Shown here one piece after another: positions 1,959 through 33,052 of a stretch of 35,798 bases of DNA. The first letter of the stretch is position 1, and every line of letters begins with the position of its first letter. The stretch lies in assembly GCA_017530275.1 (NCBI GenBank), contig JAFXMP010000245.1, forward strand, positions 1 through 35,798, written 5' to 3'. Source of the stretch: Clostridia bacterium (GTDB taxonomy: Bacteria; Bacillota_A; Clostridia; Christensenellales; Aristaeellaceae). The notes beneath the pieces were generated by a model that did not search any database, was not told where the DNA came from, and saw only the letters and a program-made list of their open reading frames with translations. The position numbers and the translations under genes were made by a program.

Positions 1959-3752
1959 ATGCCGGACATTCACGGAAACATTACGGGCATCCGGGACAGC
2001 GAGCTTGCGGAGCTGAAAGCCCTGTACGACTGTCCTTTTGAATGGAATGAATACGCGCCGCGTGAGCTGATTTTAGAGCTTGCGCGGCATTCGTGCGCTT
2101 TGAACCGGGAAATCGCGGTGTACGTGAGCCGGGACGGGGACGTGCTGGATGTGACCGTGGGGGTCATCGACAGCGTGCCCCTGCTGGACCTGCATTTGCG
2201 TAGGAACAGCAAGAGATTATCCTGCGTGCGCTGCATCCACACCCATCCCGGCGGCAGCGCCCAGTTATCCGACGTGGATATCGCCGCCCTGCGCTCCCTC
2301 ATGCTGGACAGTATGTGCGCCATCGGCGTATCAGGCGACGGGCACGTGACCGGAGTGAGCGCCGCGTTCCTGACGGAACGGGTGAACGGCCTGCCCGGCG
2401 TGGAAATTTCAGAGATTTACCCCCTGAAAAAGCTGCCCCAGGAAGCCTGGATGCGGGAAATCGAGCTGTCCGACCAGCGGGTGACGCAGGGGGACGCGGG
2501 GGATATGACCGAGCCGCCGGAGCGCGCCGTGCTGGTGGGCATCGATTCGGAAAAATCCCTGGACGAGCTGGCCGCATTGGCGGAAAGCGCCGGGGCCCAG
2601 GTGGTGGGCCGGTTCTTCCAGAAGCGCCTCAAGCCGGACACCGCCACCTTCGTGGGCAGCGGCAAGGCCCAGCAGATGCAGCTGGACGCCCAGGCCCTGG
2701 AAGCCGACCTGGTGATCTTTGACGACGAGCTGACCGGGGCCCAGACCCGCAATTTGGAAGAGATCATCGGTGTGAAGGTCATCGACCGCACCACCCTGAT
2801 CCTGGATATTTTCGCCCAGCGCGCCCAGAGCGGCGAGGGCAAATTGCAGGTGCAGCTGGCCCAGCTCAAATACCGTTCCGGGCGGCTCATCGGCCAGGGT
2901 CTGATCCTGTCCCGCCTGGGCGGCGGCATCGGCACCCGGGGCCCCGGCGAAAGCAAGCTGGAAATCGACCGCCGCCGCATCCGGGAGCAGATCACCGCCC
3001 TGAAACGGGAACTGGACACCCTGCAGAAGCAGCGCCAGCTTCGCCGTAGGAACCGGGAAAAGAACGCCATCCCCATCGTTTCTCTGGTGGGGTACACCAA
3101 TACGGGCAAATCCACCCTGCTCAACACCATTACCGGCGCGGGGGTGTACGCGGAAAACAAGCTGTTCGCCACCCTGGATGCTGTGTCCCGCAGGGTGGAG
3201 CTGCCCGACGGCGGCGAATTCTTGCTGGTGGACACCGTGGGCTTTATCAGCAAGCTGCCCCACGAGCTGGTGGAAGCGTTCAAGTCCACTTTAGAAGAAG
3301 CGGCCCTTTCGGACCTGCTGGTGATCGTTTCCGACGCCGCCTCCCCCGATACCCCGGAACAGCATCGGGTGGTGGAGGAAGTGCTTGCCCAGATCGGGGC
3401 CGACACCCAGCCCCGCATCGACGTGCTGAACAAAAGCGACCTGATCCCCGCCGGCGAAGAAGTGCTGCCCATCATGCCGGGCGCCCTGCGGATTTCCGCC
3501 AAGACCGGCGCAGGCCTGGACCGACTGCTTTCCGCCATCGCGGGCGAGCTGCGCAAAAAAGAGCAGCAAATGACTTTGCTTGTGCCCTTCGACCGCTACG
3601 CCGTCATGGGCGAGCTGCGCCAAAAAGGCCGGGTGATCGATGAAACCTATGAGGACACCGGCACCCGGGTCACGGTGATGCTGCCCGGCGACGCTGCGGG
3701 GCAGATCGGGGCGAAGTATGGGGACATGGTACAAAAGAAAGTGGAGAGTTGA
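1959..3752 (+). CDS. hflX: GTPase HflX with N-terminal JAMM-like domain
   Basis: A 597-residue ribosome-associated GTPase. HflX splits or rescues stalled 70S ribosomes and binds the 50S subunit. Seen: the HflX glycine-rich linker (GGGIGTRGPGESK), an alpha-helical charged segment, P-loop GYTNTGKST at 378-386, DTVGF, NKSD and SAKTG. Before the HflX core lie about 170 extra residues containing CIHTHPGGSAQLSDVD, which fits H94-x-H96-x7-S104-x2-D107, with an upstream candidate Glu51 (NREIAVYV). That is the full JAMM/MPN metal-site pattern. I recall clostridial HflX proteins with a similar extension, but its role is unknown to me. The ATG at 1959 follows AAGGAG at 1948-1953. An upstream in-frame ATG at 1815 would add 48 residues of unconvincing sequence. 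The last codons and stop lie inside repeat element A. Confidence 0.93.
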   Translation: MPDIHGNITGIRDSELAELKALYDCPFEWNEYAPRELILELARHSCALNREIAVYVSRDGDVLDVTVGVIDSVPLLDLHLRRNSKRLSCVRCIHTHPGGSAQLSDVDIAALRSLMLDSMCAIGVSGDGHVTGVSAAFLTERVNGLPGVEISEIYPLKKLPQEAWMREIELSDQRVTQGDAGDMTEPPERAVLVGIDSEKSLDELAALAESAGAQVVGRFFQKRLKPDTATFVGSGKAQQMQLDAQALEADLVIFDDELTGAQTRNLEEIIGVKVIDRTTLILDIFAQRAQSGEGKLQVQLAQLKYRSGRLIGQGLILSRLGGGIGTRGPGESKLEIDRRRIREQITALKRELDTLQKQRQLRRRNREKNAIPIVSLVGYTNTGKSTLLNTITGAGVYAENKLFATLDAVSRRVELPDGGEFLLVDTVGFISKLPHELVEAFKSTLEEAALSDLLVIVSDAASPDTPEQHRVVEEVLAQIGADTQPRIDVLNKSDLIPAGEEVLPIMPGALRISAKTGAGLDRLLSAIAGELRKKEQQMTLLVPFDRYAVMGELRQKGRVIDETYEDTGTRVTVMLPGDAAGQIGAKYGDMVQKKVES

Positions 3753-3858
3753 GAGCGGAGAGTTGAGATATACAGGTGTGTTTTCCGCCTGCTGAAAGTA
3801 TACGATGTGAGTTGAAAACCATATAAATCTCAACTCTCAACTCCCCACTCTCAACTCC
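3741..3858 (+). repeat. Heptamer-arm hairpin element A (TTGAGAG type)
   Basis: The left arm, at about 3741-3769, is built from GAGAGTTGAGAG-like units. The right arm, at 3829-3858, is the complementary CTCAACTC series. Between them is a 60-bp core ending in CCATATAAATCTC, the mark of the family, so this copy is in forward orientation. The core also has GTGTTTTCCG and GCTGAAAGT, shared with element E. The left arm overlaps the last four codons of hflX, and the right arm ends 19 bp before the next gene. Six other copies occur in this window. Confidence 0.85.
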
Positions 3859-3877
3859 TTGTAATACGGAGGCCGCG

Positions 3878-4555
3878 ATGCTTGCGAAACTGTTGAGTCT
3901 GCTCCTGACCCTCCTTTCCCTGGGCCAGACCGCGGTGGAAGCCTATGTGAACGAAGCCTGCCTGGGTGGCAACCTGTTCTTAGTGAATCGGGATTACGCG
4001 ATTACGGCGGATTATGTGCCCAATGATCTGGTAACGCCCAAGGTGCTGGGCGGCAATGACACCACCATGATGCGGGCGGAAGCGGCAGGAGCGCTGGAAG
4101 AGCTGTTCGCCGCCGCCAAGGAGGAAGAGGGGTATGTCCTGGTGGCCGTTTCCGGCTACCGCAGCTATGGTAAGCAGGCTTCCATTCACCAGCGGAAGAT
4201 ACAGACCGTGGGGAAAAAAGAGGCCCTGCGGGTGTCCGCCCCGGCGGGGTGCAGCGAGCATCAGTTGGGTTTGGCCATGGACGTGGGCCGCAAAAGCAAC
4301 ACCAACCTGAGCAAGTCCTTCGGCGATTCCCCGGAAGGCCAGTGGGTGGCGGAAAACGCTCACCGCTTTGGCTTTATCATCCGGTATAAAGCCGAATGGG
4401 AGGACGTGACCGGCTACATGTACGAGCCCTGGCATATCCGCTACGTAGGAAAAGATCACGCCGCCCGCATTTATGAATTGGACATACCCTTTGAATACTA
4501 TGTTGCCCAGCTTCGCGCGGCCCAGGCCGCATTAGCGGGGGAGGGGGCTGAATGA
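3878..4555 (+). CDS. D-alanyl-D-alanine carboxypeptidase, VanY/peptidase M15B-like
   Basis: A 225-residue exported zinc carboxypeptidase. An N-terminal hydrophobic stretch (LLSLLLTLLSL) serves as signal peptide or anchor. The M15B zinc signature is complete: S126-E-H128-x6-D135 (SEHQLGLAMD) and E183-P-W-H186 (EPWHIRYVG), together with the substrate-side SGYRS segment. Family role: removal of the terminal D-Ala from peptidoglycan stem peptides outside the membrane. The ATG at 3878 follows a GGAGG at about 3868. Its stop overlaps the next, paralogous gene by 4 bp (ATGA), so the two form a coupled pair. No vanR/S, vanH or vanA-like gene is present, so this looks like wall remodelling rather than glycopeptide resistance. 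Confidence 0.9.
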   Translation: MLAKLLSLLLTLLSLGQTAVEAYVNEACLGGNLFLVNRDYAITADYVPNDLVTPKVLGGNDTTMMRAEAAGALEELFAAAKEEEGYVLVAVSGYRSYGKQASIHQRKIQTVGKKEALRVSAPAGCSEHQLGLAMDVGRKSNTNLSKSFGDSPEGQWVAENAHRFGFIIRYKAEWEDVTGYMYEPWHIRYVGKDHAARIYELDIPFEYYVAQLRAAQAALAGEGAE

Positions 4556-5364
4556 TGATCAAACGGCTGACGCTGCTTTTTCTTTCCGTGCTGCTGTTGT
4601 TCAGCGCGTTTTCTGCCTTGGCGGAAGGGATGCCGGACTGGGAATATCCCCTGGAGCCGGAAATTTTGCACGACTACGATCAATATATCACCCTTGCCAA
4701 CAGGAAAAACCTGCTGTCCAGCGATTACGAGCCCAATGATTTGGTGAACACTACCTGCAAAAAATCCTCCGACGCGGGTACGCCCCAGCTTCGTCAGGCA
4801 GCCAGCGACGCCATCAACGCCATGTTCGCCGCCGCCTTAGAGGACGGGCTCACCCTGTATCTGAAAAGCGCCTACCGCACTTACCAGACCCAGAAAACCA
4901 TGTACAATAACCGGCTGGATAAGCTGGGCCGGGACGACGGGCTGGTATCCTATCCCGGCGCCAGCGACCATCAGACCGGCCTTGGCGCGGACATTCTCAA
5001 TTACGAATGGACGAAAAAGGACGGCATGAACAAGGAGTTCGCCAAGACGAAGGAAGCCCAGTGGATGGAAGCCCACTGCGCGGAGTTCGGTTTCATCCTG
5101 CGCTACATGTCCGATAAGGAGGAAATCACCGGCATCAAGTTCGAGCCCTGGCATTTCCGCTACGTGGGCAGGGAAGCCGCCGCCTACATCATGGAAAACC
5201 ACCTGTCCCTGGAGGAATTCACCGAAGAATGGCAGGCGTATATCGCCGATTGGGAAGCCCGGGGCGGCAATTTTCGGGAACTGATCATTCAGCGGGCCAA
5301 GGTCAACTCCGTCACGGTGCTGGACGATGAGGACGGGGAGGAGGAGCTCTCCATCTTTTATTGA
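4552..5364 (+). CDS. D-alanyl-D-alanine carboxypeptidase, VanY/M15B-like paralogue
   Basis: A 270-residue second copy of the M15B family. It has a clear signal peptide (a hydrophobic run ending FSALAEG). The zinc residues are H140 and D147 in SDHQTGLGAD, and H201 with catalytic E198 in EPWHFRYVG. It shares with the upstream gene the YEPNDLV/YVPNDLV segment just after the leader, so the two arose by duplication. It differs in having a longer C-terminal tail ending in an acidic stretch (DDEDGEEE). The start overlaps the upstream stop (ATGATG at 4552-4557, either ATG possible). It probably acts on wall peptides at the cell surface. The differing tails and loops suggest different substrates or timing, which is an inference. 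Confidence 0.9.
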   Translation: MMIKRLTLLFLSVLLLFSAFSALAEGMPDWEYPLEPEILHDYDQYITLANRKNLLSSDYEPNDLVNTTCKKSSDAGTPQLRQAASDAINAMFAAALEDGLTLYLKSAYRTYQTQKTMYNNRLDKLGRDDGLVSYPGASDHQTGLGADILNYEWTKKDGMNKEFAKTKEAQWMEAHCAEFGFILRYMSDKEEITGIKFEPWHFRYVGREAAAYIMENHLSLEEFTEEWQAYIADWEARGGNFRELIIQRAKVNSVTVLDDEDGEEELSIFY

Positions 5365-5383
5365 GGGAAATCGCAAACAGCAT

Positions 5384-5500
5384 GAGAGTTGAGAGTTGAG
5401 CGTGTAGAGTTGAGATTTATATAGTCCATCAAAAGCAGGAGTCTCTTGGGATAAAACGATATCATCTCCACTCTCAACTCTCAACTCCCCACTCTTCTCC
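5384..5500 (-). repeat. Heptamer-arm hairpin element B (TTGAGAG type, reversed)
   Basis: The left side (5384-5416) reads GAGAGTTGAGAGTTGAG and continues into GAGATTTATATAGTCC, which is the family mark in reverse. The right side (5464-5500) is the complementary CTCAACTC series. Its core, read on the minus strand, is nearly the same as that of element F (GATATCGTTTT, then AAGAGACTCCTGCTTTTGAT). It fills the gap between the second carboxypeptidase and the exonuclease gene and ends 16 bp before the latter's ribosome binding site. Confidence 0.85.
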
Positions 5501-5531
5501 ATCATTACAGCAACAAGGGAGGCTAACAAAG

Positions 5532-6650
5532 ATGCTTTCCCTTCGGGATAAGCTCAAGGCCGCCGGGGCCGCGAAGCCCAAGGCGGCAAAACCCGCGCCC
5601 AAGGACTGCATAGTGAAGGAGGCGTTTTTTCCCCTTTCCCTTTTTTCTCTGCCGCCGCAGATATCCGGCGCGTGCTTGGAAATGATGCAGGGCTTGCCCT
5701 ATGCGGATTTCCGCCGGGAAGAAATTTGTTTCCTGGATACGGAAACCACGGGCCTGTCCCACGGGGTAGGAACGGTGGCCTTTTTGGTGGGTATCGGTTT
5801 TTTTGACGGACAGGGTTTCACAGTGCGACAGTATTTGATGCGGGATTACGACGAGGAAGCCCTGCTGCTGTCCCATGTGGCGGAGGAAATGGGAAAACGC
5901 CGCATGCTGTGCACCTTCAACGGGGCCACCTTCGATCTTCCCCTGTTGGAAGCGCGGTTTACCATGCAGCGCATGCGGGAGCTGTACCCGAAAAAACCTC
6001 ATGTGGACCTGCTGCCCGCCTCCCGCAGGGTATGGAAGCTGCGGCTCAAAAAGTGCAATCTCACCAGCCTGGAGGAAGCGGTGCTGGGCCTTCATCGGGA
6101 AAACGACCTGCCGGGGGCGCTGGTGCCGGAGAGGTACTTTTCTTTCCTGAAAACCGGGGATTTTTCCCTGCTCACCGATATTTTGGACCACAACGCCCAG
6201 GATATCGTGTCCCTGGCCCATATCCTGGACCGGCTCATGCGTCTGCACGATATGCCCCTGCTGGCCCAGGCTCCGGAGGACATGTTCAGCTTAGGCCGGG
6301 TGTACGAAAAACGGGGGAAAAACGAAAAAGCCCGGGTGTGCTACCGGGCGGCGGATCAGGGCAGCGTGTCCATCCTGGCCCGGGGCCGCATGGCGGAAAG
6401 CTTCCGCCGGGAGGGCGACTGGGAGGCGGCGGCCAAGGTGTACAGCCGCATGATCGCGGACCGGCAGGGCGGGGCGGGCCCGCTGGTGGCCATGGCAAAA
6501 ATCTGCGAGCACAAAAGAAGGGATATCCCTTCTGCCATCGAATATACAAAAAAAGCCATTATCTTAGCGTCGGATCAGCCAGACGCCGATATGGCCCCGC
6601 TGCAAAAGCGATTGGAACGCCTGCTGCTGAAAGCAAGGAGAAAGGATTAA
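5532..6650 (+). CDS. YprB/MrfB-like 3'-5' exonuclease with TPR tail
   Basis: A 372-residue protein with an RNase H-like DEDD exonuclease domain (about residues 50-235) and a helical TPR-like C-terminus. Exo I is FLDTETTGL with D69 and E71, Exo II is CTFNGATFDLP, and Exo III is HNAQDIVSL. Bacillus subtilis YprB (MrfB) has this architecture and works with the helicase YprA (MrfA) in repair of mitomycin-type DNA lesions. No YprA-like helicase gene is in the window, so the partner, if any, is elsewhere. The ATG at 5532 follows GGGAGG at 5518-5523. The stop lies 5 bp before the following TPR gene, with which it forms a two-gene unit. The general call (DEDD exonuclease) is firm; the Mrf role is inferred from family. 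Confidence 0.85.
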   Translation: MLSLRDKLKAAGAAKPKAAKPAPKDCIVKEAFFPLSLFSLPPQISGACLEMMQGLPYADFRREEICFLDTETTGLSHGVGTVAFLVGIGFFDGQGFTVRQYLMRDYDEEALLLSHVAEEMGKRRMLCTFNGATFDLPLLEARFTMQRMRELYPKKPHVDLLPASRRVWKLRLKKCNLTSLEEAVLGLHRENDLPGALVPERYFSFLKTGDFSLLTDILDHNAQDIVSLAHILDRLMRLHDMPLLAQAPEDMFSLGRVYEKRGKNEKARVCYRAADQGSVSILARGRMAESFRREGDWEAAAKVYSRMIADRQGGAGPLVAMAKICEHKRRDIPSAIEYTKKAIILASDQPDADMAPLQKRLERLLLKARRKD

Positions 6651-6655
6651 CGGCA

Positions 6656-7357
6656 ATGGGAATCATGGATGGGTTCAAAGCCCGGAAAGCTCTTACGGAT
6701 CATCAGAAAGGAAAATACGCCGAGGCCAAGGCGGCCTATGAGCAATTGTACGCGGGGGGCTATGTGTCCGCCGCCTATATGCTGCCCTACAGCGTGCTGC
6801 TGCTGAGGGAGGGCGGGGAAAAAAATTACCTGAAAGTAAAAGAGATCCTGAAAAAAGCGGAAAAGGCCCCGGACCTGAATCCCTCCCGCCGTCAGGAACT
6901 GCTGATGGATTACGCCGTGGCCCAGTATAAGTTAGGGGAATTGGAAAAGGCCATCAATCTACTGGAAGCGTCCCACCGCAAAGGCGCCTGCGGGATCACT
7001 TATCAAGCGCTGGGCTTCCTGTACATCGAAGCGGGGGACGCGGAAAAAGCCTTGGCATACAATCAGGAGGCCGTGGAATATGACGACGAGGACCCTGTGG
7101 TGCTGGACAATATGGGCCAGACCTATTACCGCCTGCTGAACGACAAGGAAAAAGCCAAGGAATACTTCGACAAGGCCCACGCAATCAAGGATACCCAGAT
7201 CGATACCCTGTATTTCCTGGCCCAGTACGATAAGGAAGCGGGCAATAAGGAAGAAGCCCTCAAAAAGCTGGAAACCGCGCTGGAGGGCCGTTTCTCTCCC
7301 CTGAACTATGCCACCAAGGAAAAGGTGCAGGCGGAGATCGACGCGCTGAAGCAATGA
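6656..7357 (+). CDS. Tetratricopeptide repeat protein
   Basis: A 233-residue soluble helical protein with successive TPR-like helix pairs. Recognisable units are AVAQYKLGELEKAINLLEAS, ALGFLYIEAGDAEKALAYN, NMGQTYYRLLNDKEKAKEYF and FLAQYDKEAGNKEEALKKL. No signal peptide or catalytic motif is seen, so it is probably a cytosolic protein-binding scaffold. The ATG at 6656 follows AAGGAGAAAGG and lies 5 bp after the exonuclease stop, so it is cotranscribed and may bind that enzyme, which has a TPR tail itself. An alternative ATG three codons further in is possible. Specific partner unknown. Confidence 0.8.
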   Translation: MGIMDGFKARKALTDHQKGKYAEAKAAYEQLYAGGYVSAAYMLPYSVLLLREGGEKNYLKVKEILKKAEKAPDLNPSRRQELLMDYAVAQYKLGELEKAINLLEASHRKGACGITYQALGFLYIEAGDAEKALAYNQEAVEYDDEDPVVLDNMGQTYYRLLNDKEKAKEYFDKAHAIKDTQIDTLYFLAQYDKEAGNKEEALKKLETALEGRFSPLNYATKEKVQAEIDALKQ

Positions 7358-7400
7358 ATGTGAGTCGATGAAATTCTGTCCGCAGCCTCAAAGGCCGCAA

Positions 7401-7417
7401 CTCCCCTTCATGGGGAG
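7401..7417. terminator. Small hairpin between convergent genes
   Basis: CTCCCC at 7401-7406 pairs with GGGGAG at 7412-7417 around loop TTCAT. It lies between the ends of the convergent TPR (plus) and nnrDE (minus) genes, where a two-way terminator would be expected. Neither side has a proper T-run, so the call is weak. Confidence 0.3.
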
Positions 7418-7431
7418 ATTGCTTCCTTGCT

Positions 7432-10346: not shown

Positions 10347-10360
10347 GGTATCACCTCGTT

Positions 10361-11516: not shown

Positions 11517-11536
11517 ATGCGCGCCTCCAGAAAAAA

Positions 11537-11628
11537 GAGTACTGAGTTCAGAGTGCAGATTGAATAGTGTGTACAATTTGGATAGCTCTCATTGACCGGC
11601 TATATAAATCTGAACTCTGAACTCTCAA
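11537..11628 (+). repeat. Heptamer-arm hairpin element C (TTCAGAG type)
   Basis: Left arm at 11537-11560 is GAGTACTGAGTTCAGAGTGCAGAT. Right arm at 11609-11628 is TCTGAACTCTGAACTCTCAA. The core ends TTGACCGGCTATATAAATC, the family mark in forward orientation. The heptamer in both arms is TTCAGAG rather than the TTGAGAG of elements A, B and F, and the two arms match each other. It lies between the trpS 3' end and the hydrolase 5' end, both on the minus strand. Confidence 0.82.
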
Positions 11629-11651
11629 ATCCCTGTCAGTTGAACGAGCAA

Positions 11652-20363: not shown

Positions 20364-20412
20364 TTGAATTGAAACTTATTATATTCACAAGAGCGGCTTT
20401 CTCGGAAAGGGG

Positions 20413-20459
20413 TCTGGGGGAAACCGTTCTTTCGCCTCGAAAGAGCGGTTTCCCCCAGA
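20413..20459. repeat. 22-bp-stem palindrome, copy downstream of metG
   Basis: The left arm (20413-20434, beginning TCTGGGGGAAACCGTTC) pairs along all 22 positions (one G-U) with the right arm (20438-20459), leaving a 3-nt loop. The flanks GGCTTTCT and AGAAAAGCTC are also shared with the second copy at 22649-22695. Its edge is 10 bp from the metG stop codon. Confidence 0.85.
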
Positions 20460-20469
20460 AAAGCTCCAC

Positions 20470-22522: not shown

Positions 22523-22874
22523 ATATGAAAACCCCCGCACCGATTTGTCGATGCAGGGGCGTAAGATTACGCTGTACCACCCTGATTCGCGCATTGCCCG
22601 CCAGTAAGCGATATGGGGTCATCCCTTTATGGCTTTCTTGGAAGGGGGTCTGGGGGAAACCATTCTTTGGCCCCCAAAGAATGGTTTCCCCCAGAAAACT
22701 CATTCTCAAATGCGCCTTCATTGCGGCGGATATCGGCGCCGCCCGGCGGGGGCTGAACGTGCTTGCCCCCGCATGCTCCAGGGCCATGTTCCCCCGCCGT
22801 CCGCCGCCGCGCTTCCACCCTTCGCGGCTCTCTTGAGGCGACCTTGCCGGGTACTCTCCCTTTCCTCGCATGTA
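22523..22874 (-). promoter_or_regulatory. T-box riboswitch of metG, AUG specifier
   Basis: Read on the minus strand in order. AGTA box of the specifier loop at 22855-22852. Apical AGAGAGCCG hairpin region at 22833-22807. GAAC followed by the specifier ATG at 22787-22785. T-box proper CAGGGTGGTACAGCG at 22584-22570. Finally a terminator with a 12-bp stem (22560-22533) followed by TTTTC. The Met specifier matches the downstream metG gene. Uncharged tRNA-Met should bind and favour the antiterminator. The region between stem I and the T-box is occupied by the long palindrome at 22649-22695 instead of recognisable stems II/IIA. Confidence 0.9.
22649..22695. repeat. 22-bp-stem palindrome, copy inside the metG leader
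   Basis: The left arm (22649-22670, beginning TCTGGGGGAAACCATTC) pairs perfectly over 22 positions with the right arm (22674-22695), loop CCC. Compared with the copy at 20413-20459, the inner stem differs (CATTCTTTGG versus CGTTCTTTCG) with matching changes on the other arm. On transcription it would form a very stable hairpin in the middle of the T-box leader. Confidence 0.88.
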
Positions 22875-22916: not shown

Positions 22917-22945
22917 TTGCGTTTCTTGCCAAAATCCCTTATAAT
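22917..22945 (+). promoter_or_regulatory. Promoter of the MATE transporter gene
   Basis: TTGCGT (22917-22922), 17-bp spacer, perfect TATAAT (22940-22945). It lies 38 bp upstream of the MATE start codon and is divergent from the metG promoter with only 7 bp between the two -35 boxes. Confidence 0.65.
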
Positions 22946-22982
22946 GGCTGTTGCCCATTTTTCTGTGAAACGGAGGACTTGC

Positions 22983-24341
22983 ATGCGCGCCACCGATATG
23001 ACCCAGGGACGCCCGGCTCGGCTGATCATGGCGTTCGCTCTGCCCATGATGGCGGGGAACATCTGCCAGCAGCTTTATACCATCGTGGACGCGGCGTTCG
23101 TGGGCCGGTTCGCGGGCATCGACGCCCTGGCGGCGGTGGGCGCGGCGGATTGGCTGTGCTGGCTGTTTCTGGGTGTGGTCATGGGCTGCACCCAGGGCTT
23201 TTCCGTGCTCATCTCCCAGCGTTTCGGGGCGCAGGACGAAAACGGCGTCCGCCGGGCGGCGGCGCAGTCCGTGGTGCTCACGGCGCTGATTTCCCTCGGT
23301 GTGATCCTTTTGAGCCAGTCGCTGATGGTTCCCATTCTGCGGGCGCTGGGCACCCCGGAGGATATTTTCATTCAGGCGGTGCTCTACCTGCGCATCATCA
23401 TGTGCGGCGTGCCTATTTACGCGGCGTACAATGAGATGGCCGCCATGCTGCGGGCGGTGGGCGATTCCAAAACGCCGCTGTACGCCATGCTGATCGCTTC
23501 CGGGGTGAATATCGCTTTAGACGGGCTTTTTGTGATCGTGTTCCGCTGGGGCGTGGCCGGGGCCGCTTCCGCCACCCTGATCGCCCAGGGGAGCGCGGCG
23601 CTGTACTGCCTGAATCTGGTGCGCCGCATGCCTGCCCTGCGCTTTGGAAAAGAAGATTTGAAATGGGACGGCGCTCTGGCCCGCCGCCTGATTTACTTGG
23701 GTTCGCCCACCGCGGCCCAGAACGTGATCATCGGCCTGGGCGGCATGGCGGTGCAGCGGGTGATCAACAGCTACGGCAGCATATTCATCGCGGGCTTTAC
23801 CGCCACCAATAAGCTGTACGGCATTATGGAAATGGCCGCCGTATCCTACGGCGGGGCTATCGCCGCCTACGTGGGGCAGAACTACGGGGCCGGGCAGAAG
23901 GAGCGGCTGAAAAACGGCGTCCGGTCCGGGGTGATCATGGCCCTGATCACCTCCTGCGCCATTGCGCTCGCGCTGTTCCTTTTAGGCAGGCCGGTGCTTT
24001 CCCTGTTCGTGGACCCGGAAGCCGCCCAGCGGGAAGAAGTGCTTTCCGTTGCCCTGCGCTATCTCCACTTCATGCTGGCGGGACTGTTCATCCTGTATCT
24101 GCTGTATGTGTACCGCAGCGCCCTCCAGGGCATGGGGGACACGGTGACGCCCATGCTGTCCGGCGGCGCGGAAATGGTGATGCGCGTCGGCGTGGCGCTG
24201 CTGCTGCCCCTGCTGCTTGGACAGGACGGCATCTTCTTCGCCGAGCCCGCCGCCTGGGCGGGGGCGGAGGTGCTGCTCATGGTCACGTATTACCGCACGA
24301 TCAGAAAACTGTCCTTCCCAGAAACACAGAAGGCAGGATAG
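22983..24341 (+). CDS. MATE family efflux transporter
   Basis: A 452-residue polytopic membrane protein with about twelve hydrophobic segments in two similar halves. The N-terminal MTQGRPARLIMAFALPMM and LYTIVDAAFVGRF motifs are typical of MATE (NorM/DinF-like) cation-coupled multidrug exporters. Also seen are GDSKTPLYAM in half one and GMGDTVTPM, the equivalent in half two. The ATG at 22983 follows GGAGG at 22972-22976 and a good promoter. The frame is open further upstream into the metG leader, but that part is non-coding. It could export drugs, metabolites or lipid precursors; substrate unknown. Confidence 0.93.
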   Translation: MRATDMTQGRPARLIMAFALPMMAGNICQQLYTIVDAAFVGRFAGIDALAAVGAADWLCWLFLGVVMGCTQGFSVLISQRFGAQDENGVRRAAAQSVVLTALISLGVILLSQSLMVPILRALGTPEDIFIQAVLYLRIIMCGVPIYAAYNEMAAMLRAVGDSKTPLYAMLIASGVNIALDGLFVIVFRWGVAGAASATLIAQGSAALYCLNLVRRMPALRFGKEDLKWDGALARRLIYLGSPTAAQNVIIGLGGMAVQRVINSYGSIFIAGFTATNKLYGIMEMAAVSYGGAIAAYVGQNYGAGQKERLKNGVRSGVIMALITSCAIALALFLLGRPVLSLFVDPEAAQREEVLSVALRYLHFMLAGLFILYLLYVYRSALQGMGDTVTPMLSGGAEMVMRVGVALLLPLLLGQDGIFFAEPAAWAGAEVLLMVTYYRTIRKLSFPETQKAG

Positions 24342-24342
24342 C

Positions 24343-24455
24343 AGTGTTCAGCGTACAGAGTTCAGCGTGCAGTTTTATTTTGCCCAAACAATAAGCTGCA
24401 TTCTTTGGGGATCACTATATAAACTGAACTCTGAACTCTGTACTCTGTACTCTCT
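24343..24455 (+). repeat. Heptamer-arm hairpin element D (TTCAGAG/GTACAGA type)
   Basis: Left arm at 24345-24372 contains GTTCAGCGTACAGAGTTCAG. Right arm at 24424-24455 contains CTGAACTCTGAACTCTGTAC and a further CTGTACTCTC. Both arms combine TTCAGAG and GTACAGA units. The core contains TATTTTG near the left arm and ends CACTATATAAACTG, forward orientation. It lies between the MATE and tex genes, 22 bp ahead of the tex ribosome binding site. Confidence 0.82.
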
Positions 24456-24493
24456 AAAATGAAATTTCCTATCCTTAAGGAGGATTCTGCTTT

Positions 24494-26644: not shown

Positions 26645-26682
26645 GGGCGCCTCGTATATCCCTTAAGTTTGTGGATTATAAT

Positions 26683-26800
26683 GAGTGTGGAGTTTGGAGT
26701 GTGGAGAGTGGAGTTTTATATAGTTTTCCACTTTCAGCCGGCAAAAGCAGTAGACGAAAAACACGAACAAAATATAACTCCACACTCCACTCTCCACACT
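26683..26800 (-). repeat. Heptamer-arm hairpin element E (GTGGAGA type, reversed)
   Basis: The left side (26683-26713) is built from GAGTGTGGAG and GTGTGGAGAGTGGAG units and continues into TTTTATATAGTTTTCC, the reversed family mark. The right side (26777-26800) is CTCCACACTCCACTCTCC-like. Both arms use GTGGAGA-type units, unlike any other full copy here. The minus-strand core shares TATTTTGTT with element G and GCTGAAAGT with element A. It lies between tex and murG. Confidence 0.83.
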
Positions 26801-26849
26801 TTTCTTAACACTCCCCACTGAATGAAACGGCATGAAGGAGGAAGCGAGA

Positions 26850-27917: not shown

Positions 27918-27938
27918 GCGTATAACCAAATCGCTGAA

Positions 27939-27966
27939 AGCCTTTCCTGAACGGAGGGGCTTTTTT
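27939..27966 (+). terminator. Intrinsic terminator of murG
   Basis: AGCCTTTCC (27939-27947) pairs with GGAGGGGCT (27953-27961, two G-U pairs), followed by a run of six T (27961-27966). It lies 21 bp after the murG stop. Confidence 0.85.
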
Positions 27967-28025
27967 GCGTGTGTATAGTTTTTCTTCCTTCCGCGCATCC
28001 TGAATCCCGAAAGGAAGGATCGCTT

Positions 28026-28265
28026 GTGCGGAAATTGCGGATGATCGCGGGCGTGCTGGCTTTAGTCTTAGTCCTGCATACGGTGGGCGGGGCGCTGGGA
28101 GAGTATCGCTGGACGGGGGAAGGAAACCGCGCCTTGTGGGGCGTGATGTACAAAGACGCTTTGCTTTTGGCGAAAGCGGACGGAGAAATACCGGAGGACG
28201 AAACCGAAGTGGTTTTCGTCTGGCCGCTGTGGGACTGGCTGCTGCGCTTTTTGGGCTTTCAATGA
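28026..28265 (+). CDS. Small exported or membrane-anchored protein, unknown
   Basis: A 79-residue protein I do not recognise. An N-terminal positively charged start and hydrophobic segment (MIAGVLALVLVLHTVGGALG) look like a signal peptide or single TM anchor. The rest is short, with a Trp-rich C-terminal end (VFVWPLWDWLLRFLGF) that could be amphipathic. The GTG at 28026 follows AAAGGAAGG at good spacing; an upstream ATG at 27969 lies within the murG terminator region and is less likely. There is no strong promoter or partner gene. Codon use resembles its neighbours. Confidence 0.5.
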   Translation: MRKLRMIAGVLALVLVLHTVGGALGEYRWTGEGNRALWGVMYKDALLLAKADGEIPEDETEVVFVWPLWDWLLRFLGFQ

Positions 28266-28334
28266 TTTTTCCCGCTTGCTTTTCCCAGGCACATGCTTTA
28301 TTATAAAAATGAGGTAACTATTCAGTCGCTAATT

Positions 28335-28465
28335 GGACGCTTTCAATCAGAGTTGAGAGTTGAGATGATATCGTTTTTTTCCAAGAGACTCCTGCTTTTG
28401 ATTGACGATATAAATCTCAACTCTACACTCTCAACTCTCAACTCTTTTGCTGACATAAAGTGCCC
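28335..28465 (+). repeat. Heptamer-arm hairpin element F (TTGAGAG type) with outer inverted ends
   Basis: Left arm at 28349-28366 (AGAGTTGAGAGTTGAGAT), right arm at 28412-28444 (TCTCAACTCTACACTC and onward). The core reads GATATCGTTTT, then AAGAGACTCCTGCTTTTGAT, and ends GACGATATAAATC. It is the near-identical forward version of element B's core. Outside the arms, GGACGCTTT (28335-28343) and AAAGTGCCC (28457-28465) form imperfect inverted ends like those of element G. The rest of the 264-bp gap before the U32 gene holds nothing else recognisable. Confidence 0.85.
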
Positions 28466-28529
28466 TTTATATCAGGACGACTGAACAATTACAGTGTCCC
28501 GTAATTCTTTTGGAAACCTGGAGGAAAGC

Positions 28530-29753
28530 ATGGCTTTACCGGAATTGCTGGCCCCGGCAGGGGGCATGGCCCAATTAAAGGCCGCGCTGCGCTTTGGGGC
28601 GGACGCGGTATACGGCGCGCTGCCCGCGTTCGGCCTTCGGGCCTTCGCGGGAAATTTCACCTGGGAGGAATTAGAGCAGGCCCTTTCCCTGGTACACCGC
28701 CGGGGAAAGAAATTTTATCTCACTTTGAACATCCTGCCCTATGAGGATGAATTGCCTGCCCTGATCGATACGGCCCGCCGGGCCTGGGAAATGGGCGTGG
28801 ACGCGGCGCTGGTGAGCGATTTGGGCGCGTTCCTGGCTCTGCGGCGGGAAGTGCCGGACCTCAAGCTGCATATCAGCACCCAGGCTAATACCCTGAACGC
28901 CGAGGCCGCCCGATTTTATTATGAACACGGGGCGGAGCGGATCGTGCTGGCCCGTGAGCTGTCCTTGGAACGCATCGCCGCCCTGCGGGAAAAACTGCCC
29001 CCCGCGCTGGAAATTGAAGCCTTCGTTCACGGGGCCATGTGCATGAGCTATTCGGGCCGGTGTATGCTGTCCGACCATTTGACGGGCCGGGGCGGCAACC
29101 GTGGAGCCTGCGCCCAGCCCTGCCGGTGGGAGTACGCTTTGGTGGAGAAAAAGCGCCCTGGTGAATACTGGCCCATCGAGGAGGATGAAAGGGGCACTTA
29201 CCTTTTGTCCGCCTACGATCTGAACATGCTATCCTATCTGCCGGAACTGATCCGGGCAGGCGTTGCCAGCCTCAAAATCGAAGGCCGCATGAAAACGGAA
29301 TACTACGTGGCCACCGTAGTGGGGGCTTACCGCCGGGCGCTAAACGCTCTGGCGGAAAGCGAGGAAGCCTACCACGCCATGGTGCCGGAACTGGAAGGGG
29401 AGCTCCGTAAGGCCAGCCATCGGGATTTCAACACGGGCTTTTACTTCGGCGCTCCCGAACCCGCGGCCGGGGCGGCAGGCTTTACCCAGGATATGGAGTA
29501 TGTGGCCCGGGTGGAGGACTGGCGAGACGGCGTGGCTACCCTTCACGTGAAAAACCGCTTTTATGTGGGCGATACCCTGGACCTGCTGCGTCCCCAGGGC
29601 CCCGTATCCTTCCCGGTGGAAAGCATCACGCTGTGCGATACCGGCGAAAAGGCCGATACTGTTTCCATCGCCGGGCAGCGGGTGATGATCCCCTCGCCGC
29701 CTGCCGAGGAGGGGGATTTCCTGCGGGGCCCCAACCGGAACCACCGGGGGTAA
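28530..29753 (+). CDS. Peptidase U32 family protein (YrrO/RlhA-like)
   Basis: A 407-residue U32-family protein. The N-terminal PELLAPAGGMAQLKAALRFGADAVYGA is the family's TIM-barrel start. Four conserved cysteines are at C171, C178, C194 and C198 (MCMSYSGRC, then GACAQPC). In characterised members such as RlhA and UbiU/V these bind a [4Fe-4S] cluster. Despite the name, proven bacterial members are tRNA/rRNA or ubiquinone hydroxylases. In an anaerobe an RNA-modifying role is most plausible (inference). The ATG at 28530 follows GGAGG at 28520-28524; a GTG at 28494 would add 12 residues. The short C-terminal beta domain (about 320-395) is typical. Confidence 0.9.
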   Translation: MALPELLAPAGGMAQLKAALRFGADAVYGALPAFGLRAFAGNFTWEELEQALSLVHRRGKKFYLTLNILPYEDELPALIDTARRAWEMGVDAALVSDLGAFLALRREVPDLKLHISTQANTLNAEAARFYYEHGAERIVLARELSLERIAALREKLPPALEIEAFVHGAMCMSYSGRCMLSDHLTGRGGNRGACAQPCRWEYALVEKKRPGEYWPIEEDERGTYLLSAYDLNMLSYLPELIRAGVASLKIEGRMKTEYYVATVVGAYRRALNALAESEEAYHAMVPELEGELRKASHRDFNTGFYFGAPEPAAGAAGFTQDMEYVARVEDWRDGVATLHVKNRFYVGDTLDLLRPQGPVSFPVESITLCDTGEKADTVSIAGQRVMIPSPPAEEGDFLRGPNRNHRG

Positions 29754-29783
29754 CTATCATGCTGCATAGCCGTAGACATGAAT

Positions 29784-29815
29784 GAACACTTTTCACTTTC
29801 CGATTGAAAGTGTTC
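29784..29815. repeat. Compact palindrome resembling the outer ends of elements F and G
   Basis: GAACACTTT at 29784-29792 pairs with AAAGTGTTC at 29807-29815. An alternative inner stem is CACTTTC (29794-29800) with GAAAGTG (29806-29812), loop CGATT. The outer arms resemble the GGACACTTT/AAAGTGTCC ends of element G, but no heptamer arms are present. It sits just after the U32 gene, directly upstream of the XRE promoter, and could be a terminator or operator instead. Confidence 0.45.
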
Positions 29816-29844
29816 TTGCACAGAGGCCGTCCCTGTGGTATGAT
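29816..29844 (+). promoter_or_regulatory. Sigma-A promoter of the XRE gene
   Basis: TTGCAC (29816-29821), 17-bp spacer, TATGAT (29839-29844). Start of transcription should be near 29851, some 23 bp before the start codon. The palindrome at 29784-29815 ends exactly at the -35 box. Confidence 0.75.
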
Positions 29845-29873
29845 GAAAGAAAAATGAAAAGAGGCGTTGTCAC

Positions 29874-30380
29874 ATGGCACAGAAGAAGGTTGGGGAACTG
29901 ATCAAGGAAGCCCGCGCTAAGAAGGGCTTGAGCCAGGAAAAGCTGGCCGGGATGATCGAAGGACTGTCAGCTTCCGAATTGAGCAAGGCGGAACGGGGAG
30001 AAAAAGACCTGACTGCGGCGGAATTGAAGGCCATCGCGAAAATCTGCGGGGTCACCCAGAAATCCCTGCTGGAAGCGGCGGGCCTGACCACTGCTGCAAA
30101 GCCCACGGCATCCACCGCGAAAAAGCCTTCCACCACCGCAAAAACGTCTTCCACTACCGCCGCTAAAAAGACTTCCACTGCATCCAGCGGGGAAAAACTG
30201 ACTGCCGCGGAAAAGAGATTCCTGGAACTATACCGTGCGGCCAGCAGCACGGTTCGGAAAAACGCCGAAGCAGTGCTCAAAGGCACCAAAAAGGTGCAGG
30301 AAGAAACCGAAGCGGACGGTTTGGTAGGCAGCCTGCTGGGCGGAGCCCTGGAGGCGCTGACTGGATTGGGGAAAAAGTAA
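29874..30380 (+). CDS. XRE-family DNA-binding protein with Ala/Thr/Lys-rich linker
   Basis: A 168-residue protein. Residues 5-65 form an XRE/HTH_3 domain (VGELIKEARAKKGLSQEKLA, ELSKAERGEKDLTAAELKAI). Residues about 72-105 are a low-complexity Ala/Thr/Lys/Ser/Pro stretch with repeated AKK and TTA units, probably disordered. About 107-140 is a helical segment, and the end is a Gly/Leu-rich helix (VGSLLGGALEALTGLG). No enzyme domain is seen. The ATG at 29874 lies behind a good promoter, with a GAGG-like site (29860-29864) upstream. It is a single-gene unit with its own terminator. It could be a transcription repressor or, given the histone-like linker, a more general DNA binder. Target genes are unknown. 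Confidence 0.85.
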   Translation: MAQKKVGELIKEARAKKGLSQEKLAGMIEGLSASELSKAERGEKDLTAAELKAIAKICGVTQKSLLEAAGLTTAAKPTASTAKKPSTTAKTSSTTAAKKTSTASSGEKLTAAEKRFLELYRAASSTVRKNAEAVLKGTKKVQEETEADGLVGSLLGGALEALTGLGKK

Positions 30381-30393
30381 AAAGCTATGTCGC

Positions 30394-30426
30394 AAGCCCT
30401 GTCCTTCGCTGGAGCAGGGCTTTTCA
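30394..30426 (+). terminator. Intrinsic terminator of the XRE gene
   Basis: AAGCCCTG (30394-30401) pairs with CAGGGCTT (30415-30422), with a short inner TCC/GGA extension, followed by TTTT. It begins 14 bp after the XRE stop. Confidence 0.85.
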
Positions 30427-30466
30427 TTCAGCGAAAGAAAAAACACATGCGCGTGATTGATAGTGA

Positions 30467-30700
30467 AATCGTCTCGGAGCACGGGGGGCTGGGCGCGGCA
30501 GCAGGAGGACATTCGTTTCATCGAAGTTGGAGAAGGCTGCATGGGCGGGCATTCCCCTATTATCTTCCAAAACCTATGCCACCAATGAAGGAATTGTCCT
30601 GGTAAAACACACAGGTATGCCCCTGGTGATTCTCCGGCCCGGCGGTTCCCTGCTGATTTGGGCGGACGGGGTCAAGGCAGAAAGAAAGGATTGCGAATGA
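30467..30700 (+). pseudogene. fdhD: Probable remnant of fdhD (C-terminal part)
   Basis: This frame is open from 30467 to a TGA at 30698-30700 but has no good start or ribosome binding site. From about 30512 it reads FVSSKLEKAAWAGIPLLSSK, then YATNEGIVLVKHTGMPLVIL and RPGGSLLIW. This follows the C-terminal pattern of FdhD, the sulfurtransferase that activates formate dehydrogenases (S-S-x-x-x-E/K-K-A-A-x-A-G-I-P-x-L-x-S, then A-T, then L-V, then R-G). The catalytic N-terminal two-thirds are missing and replaced by sequence with stops. The last codon overlaps the GH3 start (ATGA). No formate dehydrogenase or molybdenum gene is nearby. A short real gene starting at an internal ATG (30616) is possible but unlikely. 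Confidence 0.55.
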
Positions 30701-32907
30701 AAGAACAAGAATTGACTGCTCTGATGAACGATCTATCCCTGGAAGAAAAGGTGATGCAGCTGGTGCAGCTGCCCGGCGTGGCCTATGAAAGCGGCGCGGC
30801 GGTGACCGGTCTGCTGGGCGATTCGGCCAACGCCCAAACCCTGCGTTTGGCGGGCAGCACCCTGGGGATCTGGGGTGCGGAGAAGCTGAACCGGCTGCAG
30901 CGGCAATACATGGAAAACCATCCCCACCATATCCCGCTGCTCATGATGCTGGACGTGATCCACGGCCACAAAACCGTGTTTCCCTGCCCTTTGGGCCAGG
31001 GCGCTTCCTTTGACCCGGAATTGACGGAGCAGGCCGCTGCCGTGCAGGCACAGGAGGCCGCCGCAGACGGCATTCACGTCACCTTTTCTCCCATGGCCGA
31101 TCTGAGCCGGGACGCCCGCTGGGGCCGAGTGATGGAATCTACGGGGGAGGATAAGTACCTGAACGGCTGCATGGCCGCCGCCATGACGCGGGGGTATCAG
31201 GGAAAGGATTTGACGGACGGGGATTCCGTGGCCGCGTGCGTGAAGCACTTCGCCGCCTACGGTGCGGCGGAGGCGGGACGGGATTACCAGAATACGGAAT
31301 TGTCAGAGCACACCCTCCGGGAGCAGTATTTGCCCGCCTATCAAAGCGGGGTGGATGCGGGGGCGCGCTTGGTCATGTCTTCCTTTAACACCTGGGACGG
31401 CGTGCCCAGTTCCGCAAGTCCCTGGCTCATGAAAACGGTGCTGCGGGAGGAAATGGGCTTTTCGGGCGTGGTGATTTCGGATTGGAACGCGGTGGGCGAG
31501 CTGGTGAATCACGGCATCGCCAAAGACGAAAAAGAAGCCGCCCTGCTGGCCATGCGGGCGGGCATCGATATCGATATGTGCTCTGGCTGCTACGAAAAGC
31601 ATCTTCAAGAATTGGTTGAGGAAGGAAAAGTATCTCTGGAAGCGCTGGACGCGGCAGTACTGCGGGTGCTGCGGCTGAAAAATGAATTGGGCCTGTTTGA
31701 AAATCCCTTCCACGGCGCGGCCCCGGAAAAGGCAAAAGCCGTGCTGGGCGCGCCCATGCATCGGGCTTTGGCCCGAAAAGCCGTTGCCGAATCCCTGGTT
31801 CTGCTGAAAAACGAAGGAGAATCCCTGCCTTTGAAAGGAAAGAAAATCGCCTTCATCGGCCCCTACGCGGATCAGAAACACCTGCAAAGCGCTTGGGCCA
31901 TTTCCACAGACAGGGAAGACAGCGTTACCGTTCGGCAGGCGGCGAAGGAAGCATTTGAAGGTCAGGAGGATGAGCTTCGCTTCGTGCCCGGCTGCCTGAT
32001 GCTGAATGAAGGGACGAACACCTCCCTGGAGGTTTTTACCTGCCCGGACTGGGAAAAAGAAAACGACCGGCTGCTTTCGGAAGCCAAGGAAGCGGCGGCC
32101 TGGGCCGATACGGTGGTGCTGTGCTTGGGCGAGCACTTCCTCCAGACCGGCGAAAGTGCCAGCCGGGTAGACATCAACCTGCCCAGGGTACAGACGGATT
32201 TGCTGGCCGCTCTGCGTCCCTTGAGCAAGCGTCTTGCGACGCTGGTTTTCTGCGGACGGCCTCTGACCCTAAAGGAAGAAAGCGAATTATCCGACGCCCT
32301 CATGATTTGCTGGCTCCCCGGCACCGAGGGCGGACATGGGATCATGGACGTGCTCACGGGCAAGGAAGCGCCTTCCGGCAAGCTGCCCATGAGCTTCCCC
32401 CGTCACGTGGGGCAGGAACCGCTGCATTACGATCAGTACAGGACCGGACGTCCCCGGCCCAAGGACGGTATCGGCAGCTTTACTTCCCATTATTTGGACT
32501 GCCCCAATGAAGCCCTGTACCCCTTCGGCTATGGCCTGACCTACACCGATTTTAGGGTTTCGGAAGTTCGCTTGAGCAGTGAAAAACTGTCCCAAACAGG
32601 TGAAATCACCGCCGCCGTCACCTTGAAAAATGCTGGAAAAACCGCCGGAACCGCCGTGCTCCAGATGTATATCCGCGATTTGGTGGGCAGCCGCGTGCGT
32701 CCGGTAAGGGAATTGAAGGGCTTCCGGCGGGTGACGCTCCAGCCGGGGGAGGAACAGGAAGTCACCTTCACCATTGACGAACCTATGCTCCGCTTTTGGA
32801 CCATCAACCGCCGCATGGAAAGCGAACCAGGGGATTTCCAATTGTGGATCGGCCTGGACAGCACCACAGAGAATGCTGCTTTTTTCAAGCTGACGGACAA
32901 TGATTGA
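30697..32907 (+). CDS. Glycoside hydrolase family 3 beta-glycosidase (BglX-like)
   Basis: A 736-residue GH3 enzyme without signal peptide, so probably cytosolic. Domain order: TIM barrel (HVTFSPMADLSRDARWGR, KHFAAYGAAEAGRDY), with the nucleophile Asp262 in GVVISDWNAV; alpha/beta sandwich (ALARKAVAESLVLLKNEGES, KKIAFIGPYAD); and a C-terminal fibronectin-III-like domain (VTLKNAGKTAGTAVLQMYIRD, ELKGFRRVTLQPGEEQEVTF). The closest named pattern is BglX, a beta-glucosidase, but beta-xylosidase or other activity cannot be excluded. The ATG at 30697 has a weak AAAGGA site; a TTG at 30658 would add an unlikely basic stretch. No transporter or regulator of sugars lies beside it. Confidence 0.93.
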   Translation: MKEQELTALMNDLSLEEKVMQLVQLPGVAYESGAAVTGLLGDSANAQTLRLAGSTLGIWGAEKLNRLQRQYMENHPHHIPLLMMLDVIHGHKTVFPCPLGQGASFDPELTEQAAAVQAQEAAADGIHVTFSPMADLSRDARWGRVMESTGEDKYLNGCMAAAMTRGYQGKDLTDGDSVAACVKHFAAYGAAEAGRDYQNTELSEHTLREQYLPAYQSGVDAGARLVMSSFNTWDGVPSSASPWLMKTVLREEMGFSGVVISDWNAVGELVNHGIAKDEKEAALLAMRAGIDIDMCSGCYEKHLQELVEEGKVSLEALDAAVLRVLRLKNELGLFENPFHGAAPEKAKAVLGAPMHRALARKAVAESLVLLKNEGESLPLKGKKIAFIGPYADQKHLQSAWAISTDREDSVTVRQAAKEAFEGQEDELRFVPGCLMLNEGTNTSLEVFTCPDWEKENDRLLSEAKEAAAWADTVVLCLGEHFLQTGESASRVDINLPRVQTDLLAALRPLSKRLATLVFCGRPLTLKEESELSDALMICWLPGTEGGHGIMDVLTGKEAPSGKLPMSFPRHVGQEPLHYDQYRTGRPRPKDGIGSFTSHYLDCPNEALYPFGYGLTYTDFRVSEVRLSSEKLSQTGEITAAVTLKNAGKTAGTAVLQMYIRDLVGSRVRPVRELKGFRRVTLQPGEEQEVTFTIDEPMLRFWTINRRMESEPGDFQLWIGLDSTTENAAFFKLTDND

Positions 32908-32908
32908 A

Positions 32909-33052
32909 GGACACTTTAAGTTACAAAAGAGTTGATAGTTAAGAGTTGAGAGTTGAGATGTATTTTGTTATAGAATCGATAGGGACTCAGTTTGACCGAC
33001 TATATAAATCTCCACTCTCCACTCTCAACTCTCATTCTGATTTAAAGTGTCC
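32909..33052 (+). repeat. Heptamer-arm hairpin element G (mixed type) with perfect 11-bp inverted ends
   Basis: Outer ends GGACACTTTAA (32909-32919) and TTAAAGTGTCC (33042-33052) are perfect inverted repeats. Inside is a left arm of GAGTTGATAGTTAAGAGTTG-like units (32929-32958). The core contains TATTTTGTT and ends TTGACCGACTATATAAATC. The right arm (33011-33034) uses CTCCACTC units next to the core and CTCAACTC units further out, so the arms match only in part. It lies between the ends of the convergent GH3 and LysR genes. Confidence 0.85.

What the first reader, a model, noticed from the sequence alone, without database searches (positions are those of the whole stretch)
3741..33052. Seven intergenic hairpin elements whose tandem-heptamer arms differ between copies but match within a copy
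Elements at 3741-3858, 5384-5500, 11537-11628, 24343-24455, 26683-26800, 28335-28465 and 32909-33052 all have a left arm of tandem heptamers, a 45-70 bp core ending in a CTATATAAA(TC)-like mark, and a right arm complementary to the left. The heptamer is TTGAGAG in A, B and F, TTCAGAG (with GTACAGA) in C and D, and GTGGAGA in E. Arms thus change together. Either the folded structure is selected or the arms are copied from one another, for example by intrastrand gene conversion or hairpin-templated repair. All are in gaps between genes, in both orientations. I know of no named family with this rule, but I cannot search.
Basis: partly seen in the sequence, partly recalled or inferred. Interest (0 to 1): 0.78.

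Follow-up and report, generated by a model that had tools for sequence, protein, structure and literature searches.

The report
Heptamer-armed mobile hairpins between bacterial genes
Some gut bacteria carry many short mobile hairpins between their genes, each built from copies of one 7-letter DNA word facing inward from both sides; different words can occupy the same gap in closely related genomes, which points to a repeat system I could not find described.

Summary
The seven elements are real: each folds better than nearly all shuffles (z -2.6 to -6.7). They belong to a repeat family of gut Clostridia/Christensenellaceae MAGs (12 places in 150 kb of one genome; 17 of 120 genomes drawn from its taxonomic family), without an Rfam match. 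Periodic inverted repeats there are almost all period 7 (34 of 38; none in 2.1 Mb of shuffles). I sorted seven heptamer words; copies of five share an outer repeat, AAAGGACACTTTAA. Empty sites and dispersed copies at up to 98% identity indicate mobility; no target duplication or responsible transposase was found. One gap can hold different words in relatives (6 of 15 sites). 'Arms change together' holds for word class (120 of 127). Letter 5 covaries between arms; letter 4 does not in class II and hardly in class I. At 14 orthologous sites arms changed singly (7), both unmatched (5) or in transfer-like fashion (2). I read them as MITE-like mobile elements whose arms are tandem binding sites for one protein per word.

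The parts
3741..3858 (-). Element A, class I word (AGTTGAG/AGTGGAG); left arm overlaps the upstream stop codon; TATA mark next to the arm on the 3858 side (strand by best model score)
   Evidence: absent in G002 and G001:C270 at the same locus, class III in G006, class II in G007
5384..5500 (+). Element B, class I; ATTTATATAGT box next to left arm; apparently decayed outer repeat before it
   Evidence: absent in G005, class IV in G002, G006 and G001:C270, II in G004, V in G007
11537..11628 (-). Element C, class II (AGTTCAG/AGTGCAG); box next to the arm at the 11628 side
   Evidence: no ortholog row
24343..24455 (+). Element D, class II; starts one base after the TAG stop ending at 24341
   Evidence: empty site in G001, G002, G003 and G005
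26683..26800 (+). Element E, class III (GTGTGGA)
   Evidence: the same gap in G001, G003 and G005 holds a different hairpin, GGGGGAAAACC...
28335..28468 (-). Element F, class I, with outer repeats GGACGCTTTCAATCAG (28335-28350) and CTGACATAAAGTGCCCTTT (28450-28468)
   Evidence: empty site in G002 and G003; G003 alignment
32908..33055 (-). Element G, class I, with outer repeats AGGACACTTTAAGTTAC (from 32908, directly after the TGA stop) and CTGATTTAAAGTGTCCTTT (33037-33055)
   Evidence: G002 has the same left junction followed by class IV heptamers

Best explanation
These are short non-coding mobile elements (MITE-like), about 110-160 bp. From outside in they have, when complete: outer inverted repeats (AAAGGACACTTTAARTCAG), an array of about four heptamers, an AT box (ATTTATATAGT/ACTATATCAT in classes I and II), and a core of about 50 nt in all. 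Shown: dispersed copies, empty sites, an outer repeat shared across words, invariant period 7, frequent position just after stop codons, and one word class per element. Inferred: each word is a tandem array of binding sites for one trans-acting protein (transposase or accessory protein), so both arms must carry the same word while the letter the protein does not read varies freely. Words turn over because new elements replace, or re-enter, gaps that tolerate a hairpin after a stop codon.
For: Mobility: 12 class IV copies in G001 match one G002 copy at 92-98% (others down to 78%), aligned with non-homologous flanks; class I copies in G005 match window B at 78-88%; empty sites. Shared ends: outer-repeat matches beside 43/122 class I, 10/89 II, 33/58 IV, 2/21 VI, 2/9 VII, 1/11 unclassed, 0/3 III and 0/3 V elements, against 0/316 at control positions (class I and IV sets were partly fetched by this repeat or by similarity). 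Recognition rather than pairing: letter 5 covaries (innermost unit CG 32, GC 22, 1 of 55 unpaired) while letter 4 is unpaired in 23-31 of 55 and matches at chance in class II. Period 7 holds across words.
Against: No autonomous partner found: of 31 outer-repeat hits in G002 I read 20 stretches; 18 showed a proper partner arm nearby, one (L330) showed its second outer repeat instead, and one lies at a contig end. No target duplication seen in young copies or filled/empty pairs. Y1_Tnp transposases are missing from 8 of 12 carriers searched, so that class is not the general mobiliser; no other transposase class was searched for. Class III, V and most II, VI and VII copies lack a recognisable outer repeat. 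Two sites look like arm-to-arm transfer. Class I letter 4 shows a weak between-arm match (P 0.016 and 0.004), and in mixed-word copies letter 5 matches in register more than shuffled (edge units included).
Confidence: 0.5

Rival explanations
1. Hairpin-templated copying: the arms form a stem, and repair or template switching rewrites one arm from the other, so words spread from arm to arm.
For: At site L163:14853 the unit pattern TG,TG,TGGG,TG is the left arm in G002 and G005 but the right arm in G001 with a collinear core, and G003's right arm looks hybrid. At site A the innermost unit differs as TG/TG against GG/GG in both arms. In L004 and L337 a rare unit sits in both arms, one register apart.
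Against: Letter 4 matches at chance in class II. 7 of 14 orthologous sites differ in one arm only, 5 of them by whole heptamers (hand count). TGGG in third place is common in class I, so parallel states cannot be excluded.
Confidence: 0.2
2. Selected RNA or DNA hairpins after stop codons (mRNA 3' end protection, attenuation, nucleoid sites): the fold is needed and the sequence is free, so any hairpin can fill the place.
For: Location: in 15 of 19 usable tandem gaps the arm lies within 50 nt of the upstream stop (crude ORF calls; 7 elements in other gaps, 7 overlapped by ORF calls and element C not counted). One gap is filled by different words in relatives, or by another hairpin. Covariation at letter 5.
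Against: Letter-4 mismatches persist in about half of unit pairs, and many orthologous gaps are empty. Of 31 terminator-like hits in the two stretches scanned none lies within the arms or cores; one overlaps the outer end of F. That scan only sees loops of 3-8 nt.
Confidence: 0.2
3. Plain low-complexity slippage repeats: heptamer microsatellites grow by polymerase slippage, and the inverted pairing is incidental.
For: Heptameric repeats are reported as over-represented in many bacteria, and polymerase slippage has been proposed as the cause (PMC4692102, passages). Whole-heptamer indels are seen here.
Against: Inverted pairing at a modal core of 49-51 nt, shared outer ends and boxes, dispersed copies and no period-7 pairs in shuffles.
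Confidence: 0.05

Closest known systems
Intergenic heptameric simple repeats: GGGAATC in Xanthomonas, GGGGA(T/C)T in Nostoc (PMC4692102, passages read)
   Same: 7-nt unit, intergenic, length and sequence variation between relatives at the same gene pair; some form inverted repeats
   Different: Here arrays are regularly paired as inverted arms around a core of about 50 nt, with an outer repeat shared by several words and evidence of mobility
TAACTGA direct repeats of Beggiatoaceae, Cyanobacteria and Bacteroidetes (PMC4679880, abstract and section 10 read)
   Same: Heptamer direct repeats, intergenic, 7-nt indels, other heptamers mixed in
   Different: Direct repeats, in the main genome mostly near start codons; no paired arms, outer repeats or word exchange in what I read
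MITEs, in particular BrickBuilt of Porphyromonas gingivalis (PMC4596501, abstract and outline read)
   Same: Short, non-coding, intergenic, inverted ends, tandem repeats inside
   Different: 23-nt unit in one array; here 7-nt words lie in both arms and differ between copies; no target duplication or parent transposase found here
REP elements and TnpA_REP (search listings only; rest recalled)
   Same: Many intergenic palindromes per genome
   Different: Mostly GTAG/CGTC-tagged palindromes of 20-40 bp; Y1_Tnp is missing from 8 of 12 carrier genomes here
pSM19035 parS heptads bound by Omega/ParB (PMC9499535, passages read)
   Same: 7-10 contiguous 7-bp repeats, one RHH dimer per heptad, low affinity for a single repeat: a model for what heptamer arms could do
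   Different: Word WATCACW; plasmid partition and promoter sites; no homology shown

Membership tests
MITE | Short non-coding element with terminal inverted repeats | tested here: met
   Outer repeat beside part of classes I, II, IV, VI and VII, 0/316 at control positions; not seen for III and V (3 each); F and G in the window
MITE | Multiple dispersed, closely similar copies and empty sites | tested here: met
MITE | Target-site duplication (usual, not universal) | tested here: not met
   None seen by eye in class IV and class I copies or in 16 filled/empty pairs; several of those alignments were poor
MITE | Autonomous parent element with the same ends | tested here: inconclusive
   20 stretches around outer-repeat hits in G002 read: 19 short elements, 1 at a contig end; other genomes not searched this way
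REP/TnpA_REP | Co-resident Y1 transposase | tested here: not met
   PF01797 in 4 of 12 carriers searched (G003, G017, G097, G118), absent from the other 8; rings in 5 of 14 control genomes
Heptameric intergenic repeats | Unit length of 7, mostly intergenic | tested here: met
   27 of 34 elements lie in called gaps, 7 overlap ORF calls
Intrinsic terminator | GC-rich stem followed by a T run | tested here: inconclusive
RHH heptad sites (Omega/ParB) | WATCACW word | tested here: not met
   Words differ (classes)
RHH heptad sites (Omega/ParB) | Bound by an RHH dimer per heptad | not testable with these tools
   Needs a pull-down or DAP-seq
Rfam families | Match to a curated RNA model | tested here: not met
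   0 matches in the window at gathering thresholds

The most novel reading that the evidence does not exclude
A mobile repeat system with an exchangeable 7-letter address: a shared outer repeat and an inner AT box frame a heptamer array whose word differs as a module in both arms at once, either because each word has its own cognate DNA-binding protein (a specificity code) or because an unknown polymerase or template-switch reaction writes the same word into both arms. Inverted heptamer arrays with several words in 19 of 44 IMG/VR stretches chosen for another heptamer suggest it may reach beyond this clade, with the caution that AT-rich words can pair with themselves.
Probability: 0.25. Interest if true: 0.82.

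Novelty: new variant of a known kind. Interest (0 to 1): 0.6.

Why it matters
Heptamer repeats have been noticed in many bacteria, but a 2015 paper found no detailed literature on them (PMC4692102, passage). This clade gives a setting in which they are framed, mobile and sorted by word, with orthologous sites that show presence and absence, different words and single-heptamer indels. It makes testable why the unit is 7, what reads the words, and whether inverted arms exchange sequence.

Tried and rejected
Arm-copying as the general rule: rejected on unit-level tests and ortholog pairs, but kept as a rival because of two sites.

Inversion of the element at L163:14853: rejected, since the core is collinear (0.80 same against 0.45 inverted, G002 against G001).

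REP/RAYT as general mobiliser: rejected, Y1_Tnp missing from 8 of 12 carriers. Autonomous copy with the same outer repeat: not found in the 20 G002 stretches read, around 21 of 31 hits. In one search the automatic partner search failed for L335 (contig end) and gave a wrong pair for L330, which one search shows to have both outer repeats about 125 bp apart.

Mixed-word elements as a register test: 47 of 196 copies counted as mixed, most by edge units. Same-register letter-5 matches exceeded within-arm shuffles (124 of 155 against a mean of 108.4, sd 2.9). This speaks for arm matching; I give it little weight because edge units drive it.

Arm-class concordance is partly built in, because that scan requires complementary arms; the fair count is (153 parsed; 14 dropped for core length or N; 139, then 127 after removing similar cores; 7 of the 127 nominally discordant).

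Same-gap counts: 47 site-by-genome rows at 15 of 20 query elements; 5 elements had no row. By hand: 15 same word, 14 different word, 10 empty, 8 other. 'Other' is partly a miss of the script: G003 at L163:14861 and G005 at L164:17291 do carry class I-like elements. Rows are not independent, and G001 is probably a chimeric MAG, so only 'different word at 6 of 15 sites' is used. Chance co-occupancy was judged against 34 elements per 368 called gaps, but gaps differ in tolerance, so this does not prove replacement.

Literature: 8 searches listed no paper that describes these elements by title or abstract start. Six arm strings occur in no held paper. The library lacks most subscription journals.

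Full report
WHAT IS THERE. All seven elements exist. They fold better than dinucleotide shuffles (z -2.6 to -6.7; for G, 2 of 200 shuffles did as well) and the window has no Rfam match. The mark-plus-arm pattern occurs 5 times in the window and never in 100 shuffles. B and F are near copies in opposite orientation.

WHERE ELSE. The other 8 are single hits in unrelated taxa; one of these, L072 from a horse-feces Bacteroidales MAG, also has a period-7 inverted repeat, the other seven look like chance. Of nine stretches hit in viral contigs, one (L123) carries such elements. A covariance model from 55 copies matched all 11 genomes asked, at or next to the 150-match scoring cap in seven of them (both strands counted; G006 had 96, G009 36, G010 2, G011 6). 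It gave 12 places in 150 kb of G002 and 7 in 231 kb of G006. In 120 genomes drawn from the taxonomic family of G002, itself and G006 included, 17 matched and 103 did not (stricter filters).

ANATOMY. From 153 parsed copies the commonest core length is 50 (then 51 and 49) and the commonest arm is four heptamers. Class I and class II cores of 50 nt share ATTTATATAGTCG-TCAA and a GG-TTC stretch. A word-blind scan for inverted repeats in the window, 150 kb of G002 and 231 kb of G006 found 124; of 38 with periodic arms, 34 had period 7. In 834 kb of loci selected for class I/II elements, 178 of 187 periodic ones had period 7. Five roughly dinucleotide-preserving shuffles of the same sources (2.1 Mb) gave 205 inverted repeats and none of period 7. 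The words I sorted are I GAGTTGA, II GAGTACA, III GTGTGGA, IV GGTAGGA, V GTGAGGA, VI AAAAGTG and VII TTAGGGA. Outside the heptamers, aligned copies of class IV in G001 and class I in G005 show a common outer inverted repeat, AAAGGACACTTTAARTCAG. It is found beside 43/122 class I, 10/89 II, 33/58 IV, 2/21 VI, 2/9 VII and 1/11 unclassed elements, 0/3 III, 0/3 V and 0/316 control positions (classes I and IV enriched by how they were fetched). In G002, 31 outer-repeat matches occur against 0 for the reversed pattern; in the 20 stretches I read, the hits with at most one mismatch all have heptamers next to them, while one extra two-mismatch hit does not.

MOBILITY. Twelve class IV copies in G001 match one G002 copy at 92-98%, others down to 78%; their flanks differ. 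Relatives lack A (G002, G001:C270), B (G005), D (G001, G002, G003, G005) and F (G002, G003), with alignable flanks. No target duplication was seen. Several insertions lie directly at or after a stop codon, for example TAA|AGAACAC, GATTGA|AGGACAC and TATTAA|AGTGAAAAG. In 15 of 19 usable tandem gaps the arm lies within 50 nt of the upstream stop (crude ORF calls; element C left out because its flanking calls were on the wrong strand). Searches for a partner failed: PF01797 is in 4 of 12 carriers and absent from 8, and the 20 outer-repeat stretches read in G002 are short elements except one cut by a contig end.

DIFFERENT WORDS AT ONE SITE. At L162:5665 the gap holds word IV in G002, VI in G001, I in G003 and II in G005, with flanks 88-98% identical. 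At L164:17291 it holds II, IV and I. At window B it holds I, IV, II, V or nothing. At window G, G002 shares the left junction GATTGA|AGGACACTT but continues with word IV instead of I. In all, 6 of 15 sites with data show a different word in some relative. At E, three relatives hold another kind of hairpin. I saw no orthologous element with a conserved core and a changed word class, but the search for them could only see class I/II-like arms.

DO THE ARMS CHANGE TOGETHER? At class level, 120 of 127 non-redundant copies agree (66 I/I, 54 II/II). At letter level, the fifth letter covaries (innermost pair CG 32, GC 22, one of 55 unpaired; outer units less strictly, 4, 10 and 19 of 55 unpaired) while the fourth is unpaired in 28, 31, 23 and 25 of 55 from the innermost unit outward. 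Re-pairing arms at random gives the same letter-4 match in class II (P 0.17; best register P 0.51); class I shows a small excess (P 0.016; best register P 0.004), which may reflect sub-families. Per-unit tests gave one of eight with P about 0.02 (class I, innermost). Among 18 listed ortholog pairs I set aside one with identical arms and one mis-parsed; the rest fall at 14 sites: 7 differ in one arm only, 5 in both without matching, and 2 (site A and L163:14853) look like matched change or transfer. At L163:14853 the left-arm pattern of G002 and G005 is the right-arm pattern of G001, with a collinear core.

READING. A free fourth letter with a strict fifth letter is what one expects if a protein reads the word in both arms, and not what one expects if perfect pairing or arm-to-arm copying keeps the arms alike. 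A known precedent for unspaced 7-bp arrays is RHH protein binding at pSM19035 parS (PMC9499535, passages); this is an analogy only. Inward-facing promoter-like matches at B, F and G are made by the class I word plus the AT box; totals (5 against 3.1 and 4 against 2.9 in shuffles) do not clearly exceed chance.

KNOWN OR NEW. Heptamer repeats as such are known (PMC4692102 and PMC4679880, parts read), and so are MITEs with internal tandem repeats (PMC4596501, abstract). I found no account of paired heptamer arms with exchangeable words in searches. I file it as a new variant of a known kind, MITE-like but not a proven MITE.

Noticed in passing
window 20395-20462 and 22631-22698: A second hairpin family, TCTGGGGGAAACC...GGTTTCCCCCAGA (88% alike). 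Its second copy has many matches of 82-100% in the capped list, in all seven genomes searched (one listed for G004). A similar GGGGGAAAACC hairpin sits in the gap of element E in G001, G003 and G005.
   Followed up: partly
L162:9806-9916 (G002): Another repeat of about 110 bp with dozens of matches of 85-97% in G001, G003, G004 and G005; its sequence was not examined.
   Followed up: no
G001:C25 and G001:C270: Two versions of one locus in the same MAG, one with the same score against the window as G003: the MAG is probably chimeric.
   Followed up: partly
L344-L387 (IMG/VR stretches): In 44 stretches chosen for an AATTATG array, 41 of 49 periodic inverted repeats have period 7, in 19 of the stretches, with several words (AATTATG, AATTGAC, GAGTTATG and others); the architecture may be widespread, but selection favours heptamers and AT-rich words pair with themselves.
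   Followed up: partly
L072:2241 (Bacteroidales MAG, horse feces): A period-7 inverted repeat with a class I-like word outside the Clostridia MAGs; transfer, contamination or parallel origin not resolved.
   Followed up: no
window 3878-5364: Two adjacent D-alanyl-D-alanine carboxypeptidase-like genes (family name from recall) share a 71% identical 104-nt stretch, apparently a tandem duplication.
   Followed up: no
window 3750-3752: Element A supplies the stop codon of the upstream HflX-like gene (name from recall); in the two relatives without the element the gene ends four codons earlier.
   Followed up: partly
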